Made by a program: the position numbers and the translations under genes. A stretch of DNA of 25,890 nucleotides from Myxococcales bacterium (GTDB lineage Bacteria > Myxococcota > Myxococcia > Myxococcales > Myxococcaceae): positions 1-25,890 of the forward strand of contig PMBV01000245.1 of the NCBI GenBank assembly GCA_003153055.1, read 5' to 3'. Under the pieces are notes generated by a model. That model made no database searches. It saw nothing but the letters and a program-made list of their open reading frames with translations, and was not told the DNA's origin. Of the stretch, positions 2 to 23,193 are shown one piece after another (the first letter of the stretch is position 1; each line of letters opens with the position of its first letter).

Positions 2-1879
2 GCCCTCGGGGCCGGCGAGCCCGAGACGCCGAGCGACCAGAGCCTCGTCTTCTACAACGCCCGGTTGGCGCTCAGAGAGGCCCAGCCCACCGAGGCGCTC
101 AAGCTGTGGCTGTTGCGCAACGCGCTCGTCTCCGGAGGGCAGGGGCTGTCTCCTCATGACGAGGAGTTTCGCTCGGTGGCGTGGGCGGCGCTGGGGGCGG
201 CGGGGCTCTGCGAGGACGGCTTCCCTCGGGACGACGAAGGCGGGGCTGGCCTCTGGCCGCTCGCGCTGCACAACACGGTGGTGAGCGCCATGGTGAAGGG
301 CCGGCCCCAGGCGCCACCGTCACCCTTCGACGCCTTCGAGGTGGGCCGCCAGCAGCGCCTCATCTCGCTGCTCGACGTGCTGTCTGGGGCCGAGCTGGCG
401 TCGGTGAGCTTCCATCGAACGACGTGCCTGCTCCCCGATGTCGTCGGGCTCACGCTGGGGAACCTGCCTGGCCTCGAGCTCGATGATCGCTACGCCGTGG
501 GGCTGTTTCTCAAGGCGGTGCTGCGCCAGTCACTCTCGACGCTCGACCGGAGCAAGGTCGAAGGGGTGGCGGCCATCGAGGCGCGGATTTTTGATCTCGA
601 CCTCGCGCTCATGGAGCTCCAGTCGCGGGCGGCGAAGAAGGCGGCGTCGGAGGCCGAGCGCAAGGCGGCGAAGGCAGGCGTGTCGAAGGCTGGGGTGCGC
701 GAGGTGCGTGCCAAGGAGGAGTCCTTCAGGCCCACCGAGGCCCAAGCGCGGCTCCTCCAAAGCAGTCTGAGTTGGCCGGCCGCCCAGTGGCTGTCGCTGA
801 GCCCCCAGCGGAGGCTGGCGCTGTTCGCCCGGGCGCGGTCCTTCGTTGGTAGGCCGTCGGAGCACGAAGCCGTCATCCTCTCGAACATCGACGCGCTCCT
901 CGACCGCCGTGCTGGGGAAGAGATCGCCTCGTGGGTCGGTTTCCTCGGGGTGAAGGAGTCGCCGGATCGACGGGCGCTGGTGACAGCCGGCGAGCGGGGC
1001 AAGCGGCTCCTCGAGCTGGAGCCCTCGACCGGTTTCAAGGAGCGCGCCACCATCGCGCTGCATCGTGGCGTCTCGTTCCTCGAGGCAGGGCGCACCCAGG
1101 ACGCGCTGCGCTCCTTCGCGGCGGCGACGGCCTTCGCCGAGGAGTCTCGCGAGCCCGCGGCGGTGTTGGCGCTGGCGATGCGGTGGCTGTCGTATGTGCT
1201 GGGGTCCTACGAGACGAGCGGAGACGTGGTCGCCACGCTGAGGGCGCTGGTGCCGGCTCAGGAGTACAACGCCGTCATCGAGGACCTCGTGTGGCGGGCG
1301 GCCTTGCGTGTCGATGAGCGCTCCTTCGAGCGGCTGGTGGCCAGCCGGCACCGAGGCGGGGCGTTCGATCGACGGGTCGACCGGCTCAGGCTGTTGGCGC
1401 GGGGCAGGGCTGGCGAGCTGGCCACTCAGCTCCGTGACGCGGCAAAAGACGAGCCGAACCTGACGCTGGTGTTCACCCGGCAGCTCATCGATCACATCGA
1501 GGCCGAAGACGCCGGAGCTCGCCGGGCGAACGTGCCGTTGCTCAAGCTCCTGGAGCAGATTCTCACCGGCCTCGAGGCGCAGGACGATGGACGAAGCGCG
1601 TCGGCCCGCCTGGCTGGTGAGCTCCTCGAGCGCGTGCAGGCGGTGCTCGAGGGGCTGGCCGACCTCGACAGCTCGGCTGAAGCTCGGGCCCGCGCGCTCG
1701 CCCCGGGCCATGAGACGTTCGCAGGAAACGTCCGGCTGGCTCCGGTCGACCCGCTGCCGTGGCCCTTCGTGGCACCTGAGCCGGCGGCGCCCTCGGCCTT
1801 CGTGCCGCTCGAGCTCCGGCCGGTGGAGTGGAGAGACGAGCATGGTGAGCTGGTGTTCGGGTGGAGGATCTCCGAGTGA
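2..1879 (+). CDS. Partial large helical-repeat-like protein of unknown function (5' end outside window)
   Basis: The frame is open from the left edge (reading in frame from base 2), so the true start lies upstream and the N-terminus is missing; the TTG at 65 is only the first possible start codon inside the window. About 625 residues are visible. The protein is Ala/Leu/Arg-rich and mostly helical, with an Ala/Lys/Glu-rich, coiled-coil-like segment coded around 610-730 and TPR-like helix pairs around 1030-1320 (pattern with GVSFLEAGRTQDALRSFAAA). The end is Pro-rich and closes with a short beta-like segment ending FGWRISE. No catalytic motif, signal peptide or membrane segment is visible in this part. 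It overlaps the next gene by a GTGA stop-start, so the two are probably translated together. I do not recognise the family; a scaffold or regulatory role is possible but not shown. Confidence 0.85.
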   Translation, partial: ALGAGEPETPSDQSLVFYNARLALREAQPTEALKLWLLRNALVSGGQGLSPHDEEFRSVAWAALGAAGLCEDGFPRDDEGGAGLWPLALHNTVVSAMVKGRPQAPPSPFDAFEVGRQQRLISLLDVLSGAELASVSFHRTTCLLPDVVGLTLGNLPGLELDDRYAVGLFLKAVLRQSLSTLDRSKVEGVAAIEARIFDLDLALMELQSRAAKKAASEAERKAAKAGVSKAGVREVRAKEESFRPTEAQARLLQSSLSWPAAQWLSLSPQRRLALFARARSFVGRPSEHEAVILSNIDALLDRRAGEEIASWVGFLGVKESPDRRALVTAGERGKRLLELEPSTGFKERATIALHRGVSFLEAGRTQDALRSFAAATAFAEESREPAAVLALAMRWLSYVLGSYETSGDVVATLRALVPAQEYNAVIEDLVWRAALRVDERSFERLVASRHRGGAFDRRVDRLRLLARGRAGELATQLRDAAKDEPNLTLVFTRQLIDHIEAEDAGARRANVPLLKLLEQILTGLEAQDDGRSASARLAGELLERVQAVLEGLADLDSSAEARARALAPGHETFAGNVRLAPVDPLPWPFVAPEPAAPSAFVPLELRPVEWRDEHGELVFGWRISE

Positions 1880-2517
1880 AGCGCGGCGAGCTTCGGCGTC
1901 AGCTCAGGCGGAGAGCGAAGGAGCTCCGGGCCCAGCTCTCCGATGCGCGCCGTCAGGTCAGAGACAGGGTCGCGGGCCTCGAGGTGGTGCAGCGGGAGCG
2001 ACGGCGCCGACGGCTGAAGCAGGCCGCGGGCCTCGCGATTGTCATCGCGCTGTTGCTCTTGATTCGATGTGACTGTGGGCGGGTGAGCCCTGAGGTCGCC
2101 GCCGAGGTCGCGCCGGTCGTCGATGCTGGGGTCCAGCCGCGGCCAACCGTTGCGACGGCCTCAAAGGCGTTGGAGGCACGCGTGGAGCGTCAGCCCAGGG
2201 CGGCCTTCACAACACAGGCACAGGAAGCCAGTTCCTGGCTCGACGAGTTCCGGCTCCAGGTGGCGGCCCGGAGCCCTCGGCTGGCGCGCTGCTTCAGCGG
2301 AGCCGAGCACCCCGGGGCGTTGAGGTGGAGCGTGGCCCTGAACCCGTCGAGCGGCGCCGTGTCGGACCATCAGCTTGATCTGGTCGGCCCAGACCCCGAC
2401 TTGCAGACGAAGCAACGAGAGTGTCTCGAGCGCGCGCTGTCGAGCCCGCCGTATGCGCTGGCCGGGGCCTCGGAAGACGCCCTCGCTCGCAGGGTGAGCT
2501 TGGTGATCGAGTTCTAG
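1876..2517 (+). CDS. Small single-pass membrane protein with AgmX/PglI (TonB-like) C-terminal domain
   Basis: The GTG start at 1876 overlaps the upstream TGA (GTGA) and has a GGAGG at 1863-1867 with 8-bp spacing; a longer start at 1861 would include that Shine-Dalgarno and is less likely. The product has 213 residues. The first ~45 are very basic and helical (many Arg/Lys/Gln), followed by one membrane segment near residues 46-60 (AAGLAIVIALLLLIRC), so the N-terminus should be cytoplasmic. A linker of about 70 residues leads to a C-terminal domain of about 80 residues with the layout seen in AgmX/PglI tails of myxobacteria: a helix with LARCF, strands with RWSVALNPSSGAV, a CLERAL helix and a final beta strand. 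Such tails are TonB-like periplasmic modules that link inner- and outer-membrane parts. Family assignment is by eye and moderate; the partner is unknown. Confidence 0.85.
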   Translation: MKRGELRRQLRRRAKELRAQLSDARRQVRDRVAGLEVVQRERRRRRLKQAAGLAIVIALLLLIRCDCGRVSPEVAAEVAPVVDAGVQPRPTVATASKALEARVERQPRAAFTTQAQEASSWLDEFRLQVAARSPRLARCFSGAEHPGALRWSVALNPSSGAVSDHQLDLVGPDPDLQTKQRECLERALSSPPYALAGASEDALARRVSLVIEF

Positions 2518-2614
2518 AAGTAGGCGACGTCACCTCACCGCACCCGTCGTTGCATGAGGATTCTCCATACGCTAAACAGGCACGCCGCTGGGTGCTCATT
2601 GGGGGAGGCGCCGG

Positions 2615-4081
2615 ATGACGATTGGCCGATGGCTTCTGGACGGGTGGTGTGTCAAAGATTTCACGCGCGAGTATCGCTTCTTCCTTTCGTGGGACTGGTA
2701 CCGGCTCACGTGTGAGGAACCTACGCCACCGGAACAGCTCAGCACCTGGGACGCCGAGCGCGTCATCGAGAGGAATGCCTGTGAGCCCAACCACTTGGGC
2801 AATCGGGTCATCGAGTCGCTGTATCGCGCCGTGACCCGTCAAGAATGCCTCCCGAGCGTCGCTTCTCGAGACCTCGAGAATCTCATGTTGTCGACGGTGC
2901 TTGAGGCGGTGAGCTCTCGGCGACTGGTGGCGGTACAGGTCGAGTGGTCCGTCCCAGACCAGTATGTTGCTGACCCCGAACCGGAGCTCGAGAATCCGAC
3001 TGAGCCCCTTCCTCCGGCCACGTTTGAGTTGCAGGTCGTGCTGGACTGCGACAGCACAGCGATCACCCGCCTCCGCCTCGACGTCAAGCCACAGGACGAA
3101 CGGGACTTCCGCGACTTCGCCACTGACGGAGATGGCTGGATTCGCATCGAGCACTCGCCACAGACCCCGACACACGTTCGGTCGCCACAGGGCATGACCG
3201 GCTTCCGACTCGACGACTGCGCCGTCGTGGTTGGCTGGGGCCTCGCGCCCCTCGAGAGGCAGGAGACTCCGAAGAGAGACCGGCCTACGGACACACACAT
3301 CCGGCGTCTGGTGGAGATCTCCGAGTACCATGTGCGAAACGGCGACTCGCAGGCCAGCCTCGCCACTCGCGCGAAGATGAGCTGGGCGGACCTCGCCTAC
3401 TTCAACTGGGGAACGAGGGGGCCGGAGGAAGTAGACCAGCACCTCCTGCTTGAGGTCGGCTGCCGGAAGAAGGGAAGAAATGGCGGTTTCGTCTTCTCTG
3501 ATGCAGACAAGCCCGGCATCATCCTGATTCCGAAGCCCTTCTCCCATGACGGGCTCTCGGCCGGCATCAAGAACGTTCTGAGAGTCAAGCCGCTCGAAAG
3601 GAGGGTCTTCGAGGTGGAGATCGTGTCGGATGAAGGACTGCCCATTCCCGACGCTCAGTTTGACGCCGAGCTTGTCGACGGCCGGACGGTGCGCGGCGTG
3701 ACCAACGCCAATGGGAAGGGCATCATCCTGAACCCACCGAGCGGCCGAGTGGTCGTGAGGGTGGTGGACCCCGATGACGTCCTGGCCAAGGCGCTCGCAG
3801 TGGCCACTCGAAACGGCTTCTCAAAGCAGGAGCTCACGGCGTTGTTTCGAATGCTGCAGAACAGCCCATCTACGGTGAACCGGGCGGTGCAGGCCTACAA
3901 CACGCACTTCAACGACTACTCGGCCGAGGGTTTCCTTCGGGACGTCGACTTCATCGTCACGGACCCGGACGCTCGGCGTGTCGTTCACAGCTTACTCACG
4001 GCGGCGGGACTCGCGAATACGAGTGCTCTCCAGAGGTTCGGCTGGCGGCTGCAGGACGGGGGGCGCACATGGGAGCGCTGA
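2615..4081 (+). CDS. LysM-like protein of a type VI / polymorphic-toxin cargo cluster
   Basis: The ATG at 2615 has a GGGGAGG at 2602-2608. The 488-residue product has no signal peptide or membrane segment. Residues ~1-230 are not recognised. Residues ~238-308 form a LysM-like module (YHVRNGDSQASLATRAKMSW, then the pattern NWGT, a VGC and a closing IPKPF) that I associate with proteins encoded next to type VI secretion and polymorphic-toxin effectors in Proteobacteria and Myxococcota. Residues ~331-385 look like a small carboxypeptidase-regulatory/Ig-like beta domain (EGLPIPDAQFDAELVDG, VTNANGKG). The rest is helical. It overlaps the effector-like gene downstream by 13 bp, so the products are probably made together; an adaptor or delivery role is inferred. 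Codon choice is less GC3-biased than in flanking genes, suggesting acquired DNA. No VgrG, PAAR or Hcp is encoded in the window. Confidence 0.85.
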   Translation: MTIGRWLLDGWCVKDFTREYRFFLSWDWYRLTCEEPTPPEQLSTWDAERVIERNACEPNHLGNRVIESLYRAVTRQECLPSVASRDLENLMLSTVLEAVSSRRLVAVQVEWSVPDQYVADPEPELENPTEPLPPATFELQVVLDCDSTAITRLRLDVKPQDERDFRDFATDGDGWIRIEHSPQTPTHVRSPQGMTGFRLDDCAVVVGWGLAPLERQETPKRDRPTDTHIRRLVEISEYHVRNGDSQASLATRAKMSWADLAYFNWGTRGPEEVDQHLLLEVGCRKKGRNGGFVFSDADKPGIILIPKPFSHDGLSAGIKNVLRVKPLERRVFEVEIVSDEGLPIPDAQFDAELVDGRTVRGVTNANGKGIILNPPSGRVVVRVVDPDDVLAKALAVATRNGFSKQELTALFRMLQNSPSTVNRAVQAYNTHFNDYSAEGFLRDVDFIVTDPDARRVVHSLLTAAGLANTSALQRFGWRLQDGGRTWER

Positions 4082-6144
4082 AATACCGCATCGCCTCTCA
4101 ACCACAGTACCAGACGGTCTCGCCGGGCGCGGAGGTCGACTACTGGTGCGAGCAACTCTACGACACCATCGAGGCGGCCGACGGGCCCAGAGACGGCTTC
4201 CAGTGGTATTGCTTGAACGATCCACAAGCGGTTGCCGAGCGAGGGCTGCCGTGGGTGGTTCGGGGCTCGGCGATGCAGAAGTGGGCCAAGGCTCGTTGGG
4301 ACACGGCGGGGCGTCACCACGTCCAGTGCCACGTACGTTTCACCGACGGGGCCCAGCACGTCTACGAACAGGTTCAGTGTGTCGACCAGGTCGACGCCAT
4401 TCTCTCTCGCGAGCTCGAGCGGGCGCGCCGAGAGGGAACGAACAGCCCTGATTCGGCGCATTCCGCAACTCAGAGGTACGTCCAGCTCCTCAGGGACATC
4501 GAGGTTCAGTATCCGATCCGAGACGCGGGGAAGAAGAAGCAGCACGATGACCTGATCGCTGGCTATGGGGCGTACCTCTCGAAGCTGGAGGAACTCCTCG
4601 CCTGGACCAAACTGGGGCCTCGGTATCCCATCCACGCGGTGCACCTCGCGACCCAGACCCAAGAGCGGACGACCCTCAACGTCTTCGTGTCTCGTGTCAA
4701 TGCAGGGGCGTTTGGGCAGCAATGGCGTCTGGTCGACTGGACGAATCCGCTCGACCGGACTCGGACGAGCCGCCACGAAGGCTCTGGTGCGACGGCGTGG
4801 GAGGCAATTGCCGCGGCGATCGATGCCTGGGCCTCGGGCGGCAATCGCTACGCAAGCGGCAGGCTCGAGTACGCCGTTCCAGGGAATGTGGCGCCGGGCG
4901 AACCGCTCGCCGGGGCCTTCGACACCAGTGGCTCGACAACGTGGGACAAGCTGGCCACGGGGCTGGAGTGGATCGGGATTGCAGCCGCTGGCGTCGCGTT
5001 CGTGGTCGGGATTGTTGCTCCCGTCCCCGGCTCAAGCCTCCTGTCGGCCGCGATCTGGACGTCGGTGTTCTCGAGCACAGCCGCGGCGACTATCAACATC
5101 GGCCAGCGTCATGAGGAGGGCTTCGGGGATTGGCGCGATGACGCCTTCGATACGCTCACGATCGTCGGCAACCTCTTCGCCGGAGCCAGCATGTGGGCCA
5201 AGGGCGCGACTGTTCTCGCCCGGAATGCCGAGGGCAAGCTGTTGCGTGCCACCCTCATTGGGCAGGTGGGGACGGACGCTGTCCAGGGAGTGCTCATCGG
5301 CGTCGAGCACCTGAAGGCGTTCGACGAGATCATGAACGCCCCGGACCTCATGCCCGATGAGCGGGCGCACAAGCTCTTGGAGTTGTTTCGGTCACTCGCG
5401 GTCGCTGGCGTCCTGACCTATGTCAGTGTCAAGGGGACAAAGGCCGACCTCGAGAACCTCGGTTCCAAGGCGAAGCACCTCGCCGGGGAGGAGGCACGGG
5501 CGCCGAAGGAGAAGCTCAAGGACCTGGCGGACCCGAAGAAGACAGTTGACATCACCAAGGTGCCTCCAGCGGAGACACACACCAACGACGAGAAGTTGAC
5601 GGTTACCGCCCAAACGGCGCAGCGCCGATCGGCAGGGCAGGAGCGGGCGAAGTCGCCTTTTGAGTCGAAGTTTTTGGAGAGTGACGATTGGGTCAACTTC
5701 AAGATCTCAGACAATCTCATCTGGCTTGAACACGTGCGATCCGGGCAAGGCAATGATCCGAAAATGAACTGGATCTTCAGGGCGGAACTCAAGAAGGGAG
5801 CGGTTGAGATCAAGGTCCGTGTTCGCGGCCGTGACGGCGCTGGCAACCCGTCGCAGTCCGACCGACTCAGGGGACGGGAATGCTACGAAATGATGTTCGA
5901 ACATTTCGAGGCGAAGGGTCGGAGGATCGAGGCATGGAAGGGCGAATTTGCCTGGGACAACTACAGGGCCGTCAAACAAGCCATCGCGTCGGGGGCGACG
6001 CCAAAAGAGGCGATCCTGCAGTCCGTCACGGCGAAGTTCTGGAGGGAGTGGGCGGAGAGGAAGGGACTCCGGGCCGAGGTGCTTCAGGCTGAAGAGATCG
6101 AGGGTGAGGAGTTCGCGTTCTTCGTGAAGTTCGTTCCGAAGTGA
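4069..6144 (+). CDS. Effector-like protein with central membrane-inserting region and unrecognised C-terminal domain
   Basis: The 691-residue product starts at the ATG at 4069, inside the previous gene. Residues ~1-120 hold a beta-rich domain with Cys/Trp/His pairs (GRHHVQCHVRF). Residues ~150-290 are mixed. Residues ~300-345 are strongly hydrophobic and Gly/Ala-rich, followed by an amphipathic, Gly-rich stretch to ~465; this arrangement is typical of the pre-toxin/translocation part of type VI and other polymorphic toxins. A Lys/Glu/Pro-rich linker (~465-530) leads to a C-terminal domain (~535-691) with the pattern G-x2-I-x2-W-x-G-x-F, SGATPKEAI and KFWREWA. I recall similar helical tails in Rhs and other polymorphic toxins but cannot name an activity. 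No classical nuclease (HNH, PD-ExK), NADase or lipase motif is evident. There is no N-terminal signal peptide, fitting delivery by a contractile or similar machine. The toxin role is inferred from domain order and context. Confidence 0.85.
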   Translation: MGALKYRIASQPQYQTVSPGAEVDYWCEQLYDTIEAADGPRDGFQWYCLNDPQAVAERGLPWVVRGSAMQKWAKARWDTAGRHHVQCHVRFTDGAQHVYEQVQCVDQVDAILSRELERARREGTNSPDSAHSATQRYVQLLRDIEVQYPIRDAGKKKQHDDLIAGYGAYLSKLEELLAWTKLGPRYPIHAVHLATQTQERTTLNVFVSRVNAGAFGQQWRLVDWTNPLDRTRTSRHEGSGATAWEAIAAAIDAWASGGNRYASGRLEYAVPGNVAPGEPLAGAFDTSGSTTWDKLATGLEWIGIAAAGVAFVVGIVAPVPGSSLLSAAIWTSVFSSTAAATINIGQRHEEGFGDWRDDAFDTLTIVGNLFAGASMWAKGATVLARNAEGKLLRATLIGQVGTDAVQGVLIGVEHLKAFDEIMNAPDLMPDERAHKLLELFRSLAVAGVLTYVSVKGTKADLENLGSKAKHLAGEEARAPKEKLKDLADPKKTVDITKVPPAETHTNDEKLTVTAQTAQRRSAGQERAKSPFESKFLESDDWVNFKISDNLIWLEHVRSGQGNDPKMNWIFRAELKKGAVEIKVRVRGRDGAGNPSQSDRLRGRECYEMMFEHFEAKGRRIEAWKGEFAWDNYRAVKQAIASGATPKEAILQSVTAKFWREWAERKGLRAEVLQAEEIEGEEFAFFVKFVPK

Positions 6145-17785: not shown

Positions 17786-20755
<2,970 letters not shown>

Positions 20756-20758
<3 letters not shown>

Positions 20759-20803
20759 GCACCGTTCGAGGGTGACGCACGGCTGGCAGGACGTCGGTGC
20801 TCA
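20756..20803. other. 9-bp inverted repeat spanning the convergent stop codons
   Basis: TGAGCACCG (20756-20764) and CGGTGCTCA (20795-20803) form a perfect 9-bp inverted repeat with a 30-nt loop. The left half contains the cellulase TGA and the right half contains the stop codon of the minus-strand Rpn-like gene. It could act as a bidirectional terminator, but no T-tract follows on either strand, so this is weak. Confidence 0.3.
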
Positions 20804-21052
20804 GTGCCGCGGGCCGAAGACTCTGTCGACCGACGTGGCGGAGAGTGCTCGCTTCAGCCACCGATCGACTTCCTGCGCGCTGGCGGCCTTCACTCGGTTC
20901 CGCGTCTCTCTGGCAACCGAGCCGAAGCGCTCCTTGAGAACGACCAGAAGGGCCTTTGCCCTGCCCTCGGCGACCCCTTTGGCCATCCCCTCGGCCATCC
21001 ACTCCCTGGCCGCCATCGACAACATCTCTTCCTCGTATTCCGGCATCACTCG
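20773..21052 (-). repeat. Left arm of near-identical inverted repeat (RpnS module copy 1)
   Basis: The 280-bp segment read on the minus strand matches 22023-22326 read on the plus strand. By eye there are about six single-base differences plus one 24-bp block missing here. The match begins 6 bp before an ATG (21046 on the minus strand), runs through the stop codon at 20801-20803 and continues 28 bp further. Beyond both ends the two copies diverge at once, apart from a short CCCTCG after a 3-bp gap outside. Confidence 0.95.
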
Positions 21053-21196
21053 GCCCTTCGCCAATCGCCTTCGCGCCATCTCCCTCAAGAGGTCGGCATC
21101 ACTCATGCTCCCCAGCGGGTGCCGTCGTTGGGTGGCGTACTGCTCGTCACTGGCGTGCGCGGCATTCGGCGGCGGCTCATTCGGCAGGTAGATCAT
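20801..21196 (-). CDS. Rpn C-terminal (RpnS-like) protein, stand-alone inverted copy
   Basis: The open frame gives 131 residues from the ATG at 21196, or 81 residues from the ATG at 21046, which has GAAGGG 7 bp upstream. Residues 51-131 are identical to the C-terminus of the Rpn nuclease encoded on the opposite strand, except for one Asn/Ser change and the absence of eight residues (two four-residue repeats). The first 50 residues (MIYLPNEPPPNAAHASDEQY onward) do not match that nuclease and contain no PD-(D/E)XK motif. In known Rpn loci the C-terminal part is also made alone (RpnS) and blocks the full-length toxin. This copy may be a separate antitoxin, a spare C-terminus swapped in by inversion, or a remnant. 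The three synonymous and single replacement differences hint that the protein sequence is maintained, though the count is small. Confidence 0.65.
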   Translation of the reverse strand: MIYLPNEPPPNAAHASDEQYATQRRHPLGSMSDADLLREMARRRLAKGRVMPEYEEEMLSMAAREWMAEGMAKGVAEGRAKALLVVLKERFGSVARETRNRVKAASAQEVDRWLKRALSATSVDRVFGPRH

Positions 21197-21271
21197 GCGC
21201 TTCCCCGGCTTGTCGATCCCCTTGACGTTCGGGCCAGAATCTCAATCTGGGCGTGCACCCTCTGCACCCTT

Positions 21272-21309
21272 CGACCTCTACCTATGTCAGAGGTGTCTGG
21301 TAGAGGTCG
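21272..21309 (+). promoter_or_regulatory. 11-bp stem hairpin in the leader of the Rpn gene
   Basis: CGACCTCTACC (21272-21282) and GGTAGAGGTCG (21299-21309) form a perfect 11-bp inverted repeat with a 16-nt loop, ending 1 bp before the GGAGG Shine-Dalgarno (21311-21315). The loop contains another AGAGGT (21289-21294) that could pair with the left arm instead, and a third AGAGG lies next to the start (21319-21323). It may be an operator or an RNA structure controlling translation. No clear promoter was identified in the 127-bp divergent gap, although TTGACG occurs at 21222. Confidence 0.55.
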
Positions 21310-21323
21310 TGGAGGGCGAGAGG

Positions 21324-22298
21324 ATGGCGAGGATGGGGGCAGAGAAGAAACACCCGCACGACAGGTTCTTCAAAGTGCTGATGGGCTACGCGCTGGCAGT
21401 GAAGGCGCTCTTGCGTGAGCGGCTGCCGAAGGAGCTGGCTGCCCAGCTGAGCGATCGGGTGGCCAGGCTGGTCGATGGCTCGTTTGTCGACGGCGGCCTG
21501 GGCGAGCATCTTGCGGATCGGCTCTTCGAGGCTAGGACGAAGGCGTCGGAGGCGTTCTTCTGCCTCCTGGAGCACAAGAGCGCGCCGGATCGAAGTGTCG
21601 CGCTTCAGTTTCTCGAGTACGTCACGTATGCGTGGAAGCGGTCGGCCAGTGGAGGGAAGGACGACAGGCTTCCTCCTATCATCCCCGTGGTCGTGTACCA
21701 CGGAGTCGTGCCCTGGAACGTTCCCTCCATGTTCTCCCAGTTGGTCCGGGAGACGCCGCGGCTGGGGGTGAAACCGGTGGATTTCCAGATGGTCGTGGTG
21801 GACGTGGGCGCCATCGACGATGGAGCGCTGTCAGCGGATCCAACGCTTCATGCGGGGCTCATGGCGCTCAAGTATGCGACGAGGGAATCGCGCCAACGGG
21901 GGAAGTTGGGCGCTGTGTTAGCGGCGCTGAAACAGGCCCCCTGGCTCGTTCCCACGGGCCTCACGTATATACTGGCGACGTACAGGCGAGTTGACCGGGC
22001 GACCGTGCTCAAGGAAGTGAGGCGAGTGATGCCGGAATACGAGGAAGAGATGTTGTCGATGGCGGCGAGGGAGTGGATGGCCGAGGGGATGGCCAAAGGG
22101 GTCGCCCAAGGCGTCGCCAAAGGGGTCGCCGAGGGCAGGGCGAAGGCCCTTCTGGTCGTTCTCAAGGAGCGCTTCGGCTCGGTTGCCAGAGAGACGCGGA
22201 GCCGAGTGAAGGCGGCCAGCGCGCAGGAAGTCGATCGGTGGCTGAAGCGAGCACTCTCCGCCACGTCGGTCGACAGAGTCTTCGGCCCGCGGCACTGA
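21324..22298 (+). CDS. Rpn-family recombination-promoting nuclease / putative transposase (RpnL)
   Basis: I choose the ATG at 21324 (324 residues) because GGAGG lies 8 bp upstream and the protein then starts close to the typical HPHDRFFK opening; the frame is open further upstream without support. The N-terminal ~115 residues fit the PD-(D/E)XK fold of Rpn/Transposase_31 proteins: GSFVDGGLGEHLADRLFEA with D65, then FCLLEHKS with E83 and K85, then QFLEYVTYAW. VPVVVYHG-type and helical middle parts follow (IIPVVVYHGVVPWN). The C-terminus (~236-324) is a charged helical domain with four-residue repeats GMAK-GVAQ-GVAK-GVAE-GRAK. Rpn proteins are DNA nucleases; recent work describes them as phage-defence toxins restrained by their own separately translated C-terminus. 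A near-identical inverted copy of that C-terminus lies ~1 kb away. The family call is firm; defence function is inferred from the family. Confidence 0.93.
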   Translation: MARMGAEKKHPHDRFFKVLMGYALAVKALLRERLPKELAAQLSDRVARLVDGSFVDGGLGEHLADRLFEARTKASEAFFCLLEHKSAPDRSVALQFLEYVTYAWKRSASGGKDDRLPPIIPVVVYHGVVPWNVPSMFSQLVRETPRLGVKPVDFQMVVVDVGAIDDGALSADPTLHAGLMALKYATRESRQRGKLGAVLAALKQAPWLVPTGLTYILATYRRVDRATVLKEVRRVMPEYEEEMLSMAAREWMAEGMAKGVAQGVAKGVAEGRAKALLVVLKERFGSVARETRSRVKAASAQEVDRWLKRALSATSVDRVFGPRH

Positions 22299-22326
22299 GC
22301 ACCGATGTCCTGCCAGCCGCGCGTCA
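22023..22326 (+). repeat. Right arm of near-identical inverted repeat (RpnS module copy 2)
   Basis: The 304-bp segment covers the last 90 codons of the Rpn gene and 28 bp after its stop. It matches the left arm (20773-21052, minus strand) except for about six bases and an extra 24 bp near 22107 coding two more four-residue repeats. The arms enclose 970 bp (21053-22022) carrying the whole catalytic half of the nuclease and its leader hairpin. Confidence 0.95.
22029..22298 (+). CDS. Candidate internally translated RpnS antitoxin (gene within gene)
   Basis: An in-frame ATG at 22029 (Met236 of the nuclease) is preceded by GTGAGG with 6-7 bp spacing and would give 89 residues: MPEYEEEMLSMAAREW, the GVAK-type tetrad repeats and the helical tail. 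In characterised Rpn loci the C-terminal domain is translated from such an internal start and inhibits the full-length toxin; its dimer helix carries four-residue repeats of variable number, as seen here. The start of the duplicated arm 6 bp before this ATG supports it as a functional unit. There is no direct evidence of translation. Confidence 0.5.
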   Translation: MPEYEEEMLSMAAREWMAEGMAKGVAQGVAKGVAEGRAKALLVVLKERFGSVARETRSRVKAASAQEVDRWLKRALSATSVDRVFGPRH

Positions 22327-22350
22327 GGTCCCTCGGGCGCCCCTCCTCAG

Positions 22351-23193
22351 TCAGTTCACGTGGTCGGCCGCGCTCGGCGGGGGCGACAGCTCGCGAACCT
22401 GGCCACTGTCGAGATCGTAGACCGCTCGAATCATCGTCAGCTCGCCCTCCTTGACCAGCTTGGCCAGAAGCGGGCTCCGTTGGAGGATCTCCTCGGCGGT
22501 GGCGGCGACGTTGGCTTCGACGCCCCGGTGCACCAGCTCGTCACCGGTGAACTTTCCCTTGAGGCCCTCGAGTGAGGGACCGAGCTCCTTCATCAGCGCC
22601 TCGAGGTTCGGGCTGGGCATCTTCCCGCCCTGGCTGGCAGCGGTGACTGCGCCGCACTTCTCGTGACCCAGCACCACCAAGAGCCGGGTGTGGAGGTGCT
22701 CGGCAGCGTACTCCATGCTCGCCAGGCCGATGGTGTCGGCCACGTTCCCCGCTGACCGGACCACGAAGAGCTCGCCCAGCGTCTGGTCGAACACCAGCTC
22801 CGGCGGCAGACGGCTGTCTGAGCACGACAGCACGATGGCCTTGGGGTGCTGCCCGGTGACCAGCGCCTTTCGCTCGGCGCCGAAGTCGTGACTGTGCACG
22901 TGCCCCGACATGAAGCGCCCGTTGCCCTCGAAGAGCGACTCGACCGCGCCCGTGGAGTCAGCGGCCCCAGGCTCCTCGGCCTTCTTCGGTTCCCCAGTCG
23001 CGGGGGCGCGCGCTTCCTTGGCTGGCGCTCGGGGCGGGCCCTTCGGCTGCGAGCGCCCTTCGGCCACCGTCTTTCTGAGGTGGGGTGGGGTGGGCGGCGG
23101 GTTGATCGTGCGAACGATGACCACACCGCCGATGGCGACGGCCCCGATGGACTGCACTGCGATCAGCACAGGGAGGATGGGGAGGCGCTTCAT
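22351..23193 (-). CDS. Membrane-anchored beta-class carbonic anhydrase
   Basis: The ATG at 23193 gives 280 residues; a longer reading to 23271 adds a poor N-terminus. No strong Shine-Dalgarno is visible. Residues ~5-28 are one hydrophobic segment (LPVLIAVQSIGAVAIGGVVIV) acting as a signal anchor, followed by a Pro/Ala/Lys/Glu-rich linker (~31-80) and a beta-carbonic anhydrase domain (~83-270). Zinc and active-site residues are present: C124-S-D126-S-R128, and H177-x2-C180 in VLGHEKCGAV, plus the typical VVRSAGN strand. The enzyme interconverts CO2 and bicarbonate; the anchor suggests the domain faces the periplasm. It is read in the same direction as the carboxylase-M15-TlpA genes but is 141 bp away, so it may have its own promoter. 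A 7-bp inverted repeat (CCACGGG / CCCGTGG, 23213-23240) lies in its leader. It converges on the Rpn gene. Confidence 0.93.
   Translation of the reverse strand: MKRLPILPVLIAVQSIGAVAIGGVVIVRTINPPPTPPHLRKTVAEGRSQPKGPPRAPAKEARAPATGEPKKAEEPGAADSTGAVESLFEGNGRFMSGHVHSHDFGAERKALVTGQHPKAIVLSCSDSRLPPELVFDQTLGELFVVRSAGNVADTIGLASMEYAAEHLHTRLLVVLGHEKCGAVTAASQGGKMPSPNLEALMKELGPSLEGLKGKFTGDELVHRGVEANVAATAEEILQRSPLLAKLVKEGELTMIRAVYDLDSGQVRELSPPPSAADHVN

What the first reader, a model, noticed from the sequence alone, without database searches (positions are those of the whole stretch)
20773..22326. Potential invertible Rpn nuclease locus with two alternative C-termini
Near-identical inverted arms (280 and 304 bp) flank the leader and catalytic half of an Rpn nuclease. 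Both arms encode the same C-terminal module in opposite directions. Homologous inversion of the 970-bp middle would join the catalytic half, in frame, to the other C-terminus, which has two fewer four-residue repeats. This resembles the logic of invertible hsdS loci but for a toxin/antitoxin-type defence gene, which I have not seen described. The arms are seen; the inversion and its role are inferred. Rpn proteins as phage-defence toxins with variable C-terminal repeats is established knowledge.
Basis: partly seen in the sequence, partly recalled or inferred. Interest (0 to 1): 0.85.

Follow-up and report, generated by a model that had tools for sequence, protein, structure and literature searches.

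The report
Divergent extra copy of Rpn antitoxin
Beside a bacterial self-toxic nuclease gene sits a second, backwards copy of the nuclease's own tail, most likely a separately made antidote protein with a different repeat number; the idea that the DNA between them flips is possible but unproven.

Summary
The arms are real: 20773-21052 and 22023-22326 are inverted copies with 6 mismatches in 280 columns plus one 24-nt (two-repeat) difference, flanking the leader and catalytic half of an Rpn nuclease (PF04754). The inversion switch is possible (in-frame arms, exact runs up to 91 nt), but no inverted junction and no close relative's locus was available to test it. Better supported: the left arm is a stand-alone copy of RpnS, the intragenic antitoxin that Zhong et al. 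described inside rpn genes. The copy begins at the internal start region and ends 28 nt past the stop. Tail copies in 5 of the 6 other loci that could be placed, and in E. coli rpnE/ypaA, break within about 16 nt of a predicted internal start. Of 160 full-length rpn genes, 9 had stand-alone tail copies within short flanks; only this one is inverted. Tail lengths differ in 7 of 8 loci compared, mostly by four-residue repeats. Since repeat mismatch broke recognition in the published RpnC test, the copy is probably not its neighbour's antidote. A new variant of a known kind; inversion remains the bold untested reading.

The parts
21324..22298 (+). rpnL: full-length Rpn nuclease (324 aa), PD-(D/E)XK catalytic half plus helical tail
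   Evidence: PF04754 E 4.2e-37, residues 11-188; D13, D65, E83, K85 invariant in all 13 sequences of alignment A2, the window and 12 relatives; 26% identity to E. coli RpnE over 191 aa; ATG 21324 preceded by GGAGG (read)
22029..22298 (+). intragenic rpnS (long form): 89 aa from M236 (22029) or 82 aa from M243 (22050)
   Evidence: Conserved internal Met with Shine-Dalgarno signal: 65 of 77 aligned genes have Met in the columns around M243, mean anti-SD energy -9.7 against -3.0 at other ATGs (65 genes) and -5.0 at Glu-matched codons (62 genes), 0 of 5000 resamplings each; this gene's own value is weaker, -5.9 at M243, and -7.9 at M236
22023..22326 (+). right arm of the inverted repeat (304 nt)
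22092..22115 (+). 24 nt (two 12-nt repeats, eight residues) present only in the right arm
20773..21052 (-). left arm of the inverted repeat (280 nt)
20801..21025 (-). stand-alone rpnS copy (short form), 74 aa from ATG 21025 (M243 equivalent); 81 aa from ATG 21046
   Evidence: open frame; SD GAGG-AAGAG-ATG inside the arm, -5.9 kcal/mol; AlphaFold2 mean pLDDT 81, helices 4-34, 39-47, 50-60, 66-70
21053..21196 (-). in-frame upstream extension (49 aa) of the stand-alone frame; real or chance coding
   Evidence: GC by codon position 0.65/0.50/0.81, like rpnL 0.67/0.45/0.81; no Pfam match in this part
21197..21323 (.). leader between the divergent frames, with an 11-bp perfect palindrome at 21272-21309 just upstream of the rpnL ribosome-binding site
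   Evidence: 9-bp core located, extended by reading; hairpin; no sigma-70-like promoter found in 20700-22400

Best explanation
The locus is an Rpn toxin-antitoxin gene (rpnL with intragenic rpnS) that carries an additional, divergently oriented stand-alone rpnS gene. The stand-alone gene arose by copying only the RpnS cistron (its internal start region, the four-residue repeats, the helical domain and 28 nt past the stop) into the upstream flank in reverse. It is expected to be translated from its own ribosome-binding site as a small helical protein that dimerises through the repeat helix. Because it has two repeats fewer than the neighbouring RpnL, it is expected to neutralise RpnL proteins carrying the short tail (such as the P0121 type), not this RpnL, so it acts as a spare antitoxin of different specificity. 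Shown: the anatomy, the breakpoint, the internal-start signal across the family, and the repeat difference. Inferred: expression, antitoxin activity and specificity.
For: Arms begin 6 nt before ATG M236 and 27 nt before ATG M243, and end 28 nt after the stop. In other loci with stand-alone tail copies the homology also starts close to a predicted internal start: L010 -12, L048 -5, L167 -16 (two of its five copies), L170 -1 (a 43-nt match; the rest is diverged), and L050 strong identity from about -16 by eye with weak similarity to -36. Positive control: in E. coli K-12 rpnE/ypaA the same scan ranks the ypaA-type start first and the homology starts at -12. The internal Met has a strong SD signal across the family. 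Zhong et al. (PMC10327210, whole main text read) show RpnS antitoxins made from internal starts, stand-alone rpnS genes, and that only RpnCS with the same repeat number blocks RpnCL. Stand-alone and intragenic tails differ in length in 7 of 8 loci compared. The frame is open, with 3 synonymous and 1 non-synonymous of 4 coding differences.
Against: No expression or activity data. L140's copy starts 51 nt upstream of the best start; L066 matched only over 113 nt inside the tail and L154 gave no DNA match, and three of the five L167 copies align from other points. The tail has no detectable sequence similarity to E. coli YpaA; RefSeq marks ypaA a pseudogene and RpnE inactive, although Zhong et al. 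detected the tagged YpaA protein. The DUF4351 match is below cut-off (14.2 against 25 bits), and Foldseek found no match to solved structures. In the window gene M236 ranks only third by SD energy among start codons of its 3' part and M243 is not in the top three. In the left arm M236 has a weaker SD (-4.5 against -7.9), so M243 would have to serve. No promoter-like site was found. A recent duplication would look intact even without function.
Confidence: 0.6

Rival explanations
1. Invertible locus: homologous recombination between the arms flips the 970-bp middle, so the catalytic half is joined alternately to the long and the short tail, while the other tail becomes the stand-alone antitoxin. 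If the promoters lie in the middle segment they travel with it, so only repeat number, and hence toxin-antitoxin pairing, would switch.
For: Arms are long, 97.9% identical, in frame, 970 nt apart, with exact runs of 91, 58, 44 and 39 nt. Tail type and repeat number occur in all four combinations among close copies: long with RH end (right arm), short with RH end (left arm, P0121), long with AKS/PH (P0001), short with AKS/PH (P0122). That is what exchange between long and short copies would give. P0121 joins a catalytic end to the short tail.
Against: No inverted junction was seen. No close relative's locus could be read. P0121's part upstream of the tail differs from this gene at 3 of 44 residues (P0001 differs at 1), so it is not simply this locus flipped. 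Repeat number changes readily in this family (PMC10327210), so the four combinations need no exchange. 12 of 13 stand-alone copies lie on the same strand as their gene, where recombination between the copies cannot invert, so inversion is not a general mechanism of the family. No recombinase family turned up among 21 other window frames scanned against Pfam, 11 of them without any match at the thresholds used; not every frame of the window was scanned.
Confidence: 0.14
2. Decaying by-product: a recent inverted partial duplication of the rpn 3' end with no function of its own, kept alike by recency or gene conversion.
For: 97.9% identity suggests recency or conversion; Zhong et al. describe duplications around rpn genes and suggest the nuclease itself may be involved in them (PMC10327210); only 1 of 160 genes surveyed has this arrangement.
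Against: The copied unit is bounded at the RpnS start region rather than at a random point, and the frame is intact. P0122, a 74-aa protein starting at the same Met with the same short repeat form, exists on another contig with different tail residues, which suggests an older, maintained short copy; its surroundings could not be read.
Confidence: 0.2
3. Assembly artefact: a false join at a repeat placed a tail copy from another rpn gene (P0121 type) next to this gene, or fixed the middle in an arbitrary orientation.
For: The record may be metagenomic (no whole genome held, which lists other possible reasons). Arms near 300 bp exceed short reads, and the other close copies sit on short contigs of 978, 1,039 and 3,287 bp.
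Against: The arms differ at six positions and by 24 nt, and each has its own flank; the GH9 frame ends 15 nt before the left arm and the carbonic anhydrase frame ends 25 nt after the right arm, both open.
Confidence: 0.06

Closest known systems
Stand-alone rpnS genes, e.g. E. coli ypaA (rpnES) downstream of rpnE (PMC10327210; locus L208)
   Same: A second copy of only the RpnS part, starting at the internal ribosome-binding site, next to the full gene, with a different tail length (61 against 56 aa)
   Different: ypaA lies downstream on the same strand; here the copy is upstream and divergent, so the two copies form long inverted repeats around the catalytic half
Rpn (YhgA-like, Transposase_31, PF04754) RpnL/RpnS toxin-antitoxin genes
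   Same: Catalytic domain and residues, four-residue repeats, internal start with SD
   Different: Tail domain not detectably related in sequence to E. coli YpaA; below the cut-off of the narrower NCBIfam model TIGR01784
Invertible hsdS (type I restriction specificity) loci, e.g. the S. pneumoniae cod locus (PMC11709252, search listing with start of abstract only)
   Same: Inverted homologous segments could exchange the tail of an expressed defence gene in frame
   Different: No inversion shown; no recombinase found in the frames scanned; the alternatives differ by only two repeats and one residue; the second copy is itself a complete antitoxin-like frame, not a silent cassette
Divergent full-length rpn pairs in a Rhodobacteraceae MAG (L013, L017)
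   Same: Inverted rpn tails, about 85-90% identical at the DNA level
   Different: Both partners are complete genes with catalytic halves; their tails lie 3-4 kb apart

Membership tests
Rpn / Transposase_31 nuclease (PF04754) | Transposase_31 domain above gathering score | tested here: met
   128.2 bits against 21, E 4.2e-37
Rpn / Transposase_31 nuclease (PF04754) | PD-(D/E)XK catalytic residues | tested here: met
   D13, D65, E83, K85 invariant in all 13 sequences of A2; they align with the RpnE PHD, SD and EHQ motifs; RpnA D11A, D63A, E82A and Q84K lost all three phenotypes (PMC5350276, passages)
Rpn / Transposase_31 nuclease (PF04754) | Four-residue repeats in the first helix of the tail | tested here: met
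   MAKG-VAQG-VAKG-VAEG; helix 237-284 in the model
Rpn / Transposase_31 nuclease (PF04754) | Nuclease toxicity and phage defence | not testable with these tools
   needs the bench
NCBIfam subfamily TIGR01784 (narrower Rpn model) | Score above the curated cut-off | tested here: not met
   36.9 bits against 52.1; so not filed under this subfamily, only under PF04754
Stand-alone RpnS antitoxin gene | Encodes only the RpnS part, with its own start and ribosome-binding site | tested here: met
   74-aa frame 20801-21025 with SD -5.9 kcal/mol inside the arm; the frame can also be read from farther upstream, ATG 21196
Stand-alone RpnS antitoxin gene | Copy boundary at the internal start | tested here: met
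   -6 nt from M236, -27 nt from M243
Stand-alone RpnS antitoxin gene | DUF4351 (PF14261), as some stand-alone RpnS are annotated | tested here: inconclusive
   14.2 bits against cut-off 25, E 0.046
Stand-alone RpnS antitoxin gene | Antitoxin activity | not testable with these tools
   needs co-expression
Cognate antitoxin of this particular RpnL | Same number of four-residue repeats (rule from the published RpnC test) | tested here: not met
   two repeats fewer than the neighbouring RpnL; YpaA also differs from RpnE, so this does not bear on being an RpnS
hsdS-type invertible locus | Inverted homologous arms in frame with an expressed half gene | tested here: met
   (arms and frame; expression not tested)
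hsdS-type invertible locus | Both orientations found in a population or among relatives | not testable with these tools
   no reads, no whole genome, no close relative locus
hsdS-type invertible locus | Linked invertase (in many such loci; recalled) | tested here: not met
   no recombinase family among 21 other frames of the window scanned with Pfam, 11 of which matched nothing; general recombination would not need one

The most novel reading that the evidence does not exclude
A toxin-antitoxin specificity switch: recombination between the divergent RpnS copy and the toxin's own RpnS part flips the promoter and catalytic half, so that cells alternate between a long-tailed and a short-tailed Rpn toxin, each with its matching intragenic antitoxin, while the other antitoxin is always supplied in trans and protects sister cells that carry the other form.
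Probability: 0.13. Interest if true: 0.8.

Novelty: new variant of a known kind. Interest (0 to 1): 0.45.

Why it matters
It shows a stand-alone Rpn antitoxin copy in divergent orientation, which creates long inverted repeats inside a toxin-antitoxin gene and makes in-frame exchange of tails by general recombination at least possible. The survey adds a pattern that can be tested directly: stand-alone RpnS copies tend to be cut out at the internal start, and in 7 of 8 loci compared they differ in tail length from their neighbour, mostly by four-residue repeats. If repeat number sets pairing, as published for RpnC, these copies would be spare antidotes to other Rpn variants rather than back-up for the neighbour. 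That bears on the open question of why the repeats vary so fast.

Tried and rejected
Own-genome search: no whole genome held. Related loci: one genome-contig scan gave 49 loci, best-segment identity at most 47%. Viral contigs gave nothing by protein or by an arm DNA pattern. Plasmids gave nothing by protein at E 1e-20, phages nothing by DNA. In 195 genomes of the G001 phylum the best full-length match was 41% identical. PDB by sequence: three weak matches to other proteins. Foldseek: nothing at or below E 0.001 for either model. PADLOC, 6 frames: one weak hit, 'putative invertase' C3a178, E 0.00087, to residues 227-271 of RpnL, the stretch around the start of the repeats; not taken as evidence of an invertase. 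Rfam at gathering thresholds: none in 20500-22600. Promoter scan of 20700-22400: no sigma-70-like site; one terminator-like site, as many as chance gives.

First SD test with M236 as the start failed: only 6 of 77 genes have Met in that column, and the energy did not differ from control (p 0.265). The Met near M243 is the conserved one. The 'all positions' control was spoiled by unpaired energies and was redone with energies clipped at 0 (control -3.5, 0 of 5000). The internal Met was placed by alignment (four adjacent columns accepted; 12 of 77 genes without Met there were left out), and many genes are related copies, so the 65 are not independent.

Survey filters: 203 sources (202 loci and the window; L089-L093, which hold another gene, left out) gave 160 distinct full-length frames in 157 sources, the window included. 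After hits confined to the repeats were dropped, there were 21 extra tail hits; 8 were dropped because an rpn catalytic region lies just upstream of them, and 13 were kept, in 9 loci. One search, with looser rules, also listed L006 and L034 (copy cut by a contig end), L047 (several copies), L031 and L044 (weak), and L039 (opposite strand, convergent, but its 208-aa frame includes catalytic sequence, so a second rpn gene rather than a lone tail). A DNA scan of the same 160 genes for inverted tail copies also gave short self-overlapping hits in L155 and L175. Flanks examined were short (median 1,443 nt up, 1,143 nt down), so more distant copies are missed. L066 and L154 were left out of the length comparison.

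Papers: searches of the open-licence library showed no report of an inverted or invertible rpn locus, but in all of them but only the top 12-25 of larger hit lists were shown, and I saw titles and starts of abstracts only. One search was rejected for a character and not repeated in that form. 'invert' occurs twice in PMC10327210, neither about RpnS orientation. PMC5350276: 12 of 23 passages for six terms seen; 'inverted' and 'inversion' occur 0 times there.

Full report
Observation. The window holds two inverted arms, 20773-21052 and 22023-22326. A direct alignment gives 6 mismatches in 280 columns and one 24-nt insertion in the right arm at 22092-22115. Exact shared runs reach 91 nt. The right arm is the 3' end of a 324-aa Rpn protein (ATG 21324, stop 22298) with a Transposase_31 domain (E 4.2e-37) and the PD-(D/E)XK residues D13, D65, E83 and K85, invariant in all 13 sequences of the alignment, the window and 12 relatives. 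It scores below the cut-off of the narrower NCBIfam model TIGR01784 (36.9 against 52.1 bits). The left arm encodes the same tail on the other strand with two four-residue units fewer.

What the tail is. Zhong et al. (PMC10327210; main text read) showed that the tail of Rpn proteins is also translated on its own from an internal start as an antitoxin, RpnS. They also showed that stand-alone rpnS genes exist (E. coli ypaA next to rpnE, and copies downstream of rpnC in some strains), that the number of four-residue repeats varies, and that in their RpnC test only an RpnS with the same repeat number blocked its RpnL. I therefore asked whether the arms are 'alternative C-termini' or RpnS cistrons.

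Internal start. In an alignment of 77 rpn genes from the fetched loci and the window, 65 have a Met in the columns around M243. The Shine-Dalgarno energy there averages -9.7 kcal/mol, against -3.0 at other ATGs of the same genes, -3.5 at all other codons and -5.0 at Glu-matched codons (62 genes); none of 5000 resamplings reached it in any of the three controls. The window gene has -5.9 at M243, weaker than average. An earlier test at the M236 column was negative (6 of 77 genes have Met there; p 0.265).

Breakpoints. The arms start 6 nt before ATG M236 and 27 nt before ATG M243 and run 28 nt past the stop, so the M243 ribosome-binding site lies wholly inside the copy. Of the 8 other loci with stand-alone tail copies, 6 could be placed. 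Homology starts at -12 (L010), -5 (L048), -16 (L167, two of five copies; the other three align from other points), -1 (L170, a 43-nt match) and about -16 by strong identity (L050, by eye; weak similarity to -36) from a predicted internal start, and at -51 in L140. L066 matched only over 113 nt inside the tail and L154 gave no DNA match. The predicted start ranks first by SD energy in L010, L048, L170 and L140, and second in L050 and L167; in the window M236 ranks third and M243 is not in the top three. As positive control, E. coli K-12 rpnE gives the ypaA-type start as the top internal start, and homology to ypaA begins at -12. RefSeq marks ypaA a pseudogene, but Zhong et al. detected its tagged product. 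So the unit that tends to get copied is the RpnS cistron.

Orientation and repeat number. Among 160 distinct full-length rpn frames, 9 loci have stand-alone tail copies, 13 copies in all; 12 are on the same strand as the gene and only the window's is inverted. Inverted tails in L013 and L017 belong to complete divergent gene pairs, and L039 is a convergent pair at 73%. Stand-alone against intragenic lengths: window 81/89, L050 107/84, L010 74/74, L048 96/104 (six repeats fewer, longer end), L140 91/79, L167 94 and 94/106, L170 78/66 (diverged), rpnE/ypaA 61/56. So 7 of 8 loci differ in length, mostly by four-residue units. With the published RpnC result, the usual stand-alone copy would not match its neighbour.

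Close copies. P0001 (93% identical, long form), P0121 (fragment: slightly different catalytic end joined to exactly the left-arm tail) and P0122 (74 aa from the M243 start, short form) come from short contigs. Tail residues and repeat number occur in all four combinations. This fits exchange between long and short copies within lineages, but also repeated change of repeat number. The contigs themselves could not be read.

Inversion. The geometry allows it: the arms are in frame and homologous, and the whole leader lies in the middle segment, so a flip would exchange only which tail is fused and which stands alone. Nothing here shows that it happens. No genome or close relative was available. 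No recombinase family was seen among 21 other window frames scanned; 11 of those matched nothing at the thresholds used, and not every frame was scanned. Same-strand copies, as in the other loci, cannot invert by recombining with their gene.

Placement. A myxobacterial type of host is my inference. The immediate neighbours are a GH9 cellulase gene and a carbonic anhydrase gene, not defence genes.

Structure. AlphaFold2 gave mean pLDDT 77 for the full protein, with a long helix 237-284 followed by short helices, and 81 for the 74-aa protein, a long helix followed by short ones. This resembles in outline the three-helix RpnA-S described in PMC10327210, but Foldseek matched neither model, so the fold is not confirmed.

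Conclusion. Best reading: a divergent stand-alone RpnS antitoxin gene of different repeat number beside an RpnL/RpnS gene, a new variant of a known kind. The invertible-switch reading stays open at about one in seven.

Noticed in passing
window 21272-21309: 11-bp perfect palindrome CGACCTCTACC-N16-GGTAGAGGTCG directly upstream of the rpnL ribosome-binding site; possible operator or leader hairpin (fold z -1.7); its 9-bp core with a 10-20 nt loop was not found in 207 loci.
   Followed up: partly
window 21053-21196, minus strand: The stand-alone frame continues 49 codons upstream of the arm with coding-like GC per codon position (0.65/0.50/0.81) and no Pfam match there; the small gene may have acquired a new N-terminal part.
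   Followed up: partly
L167 (positions in reverse complement) 394-3322: One rpn gene with five same-strand tail hits on both sides, two of them clean copies with three repeats fewer: an array of RpnS-like copies.
   Followed up: partly
L013, L017 and other CATOSB01 loci: A Rhodobacteraceae MAG with 25 PF04754 matches, including divergent full-length pairs with about 85-90% identical tails; a possible place to look for tail exchange.
   Followed up: no
L050/L004: Stand-alone RpnS copy with five more four-residue repeats than its neighbour RpnL (107 against 84 aa).
   Followed up: partly
window 4069-6144: 691-aa frame with a borderline Ntox3 score (27.0 against cut-off 26.9) and no stretch passing on its own; probably spurious.
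   Followed up: no
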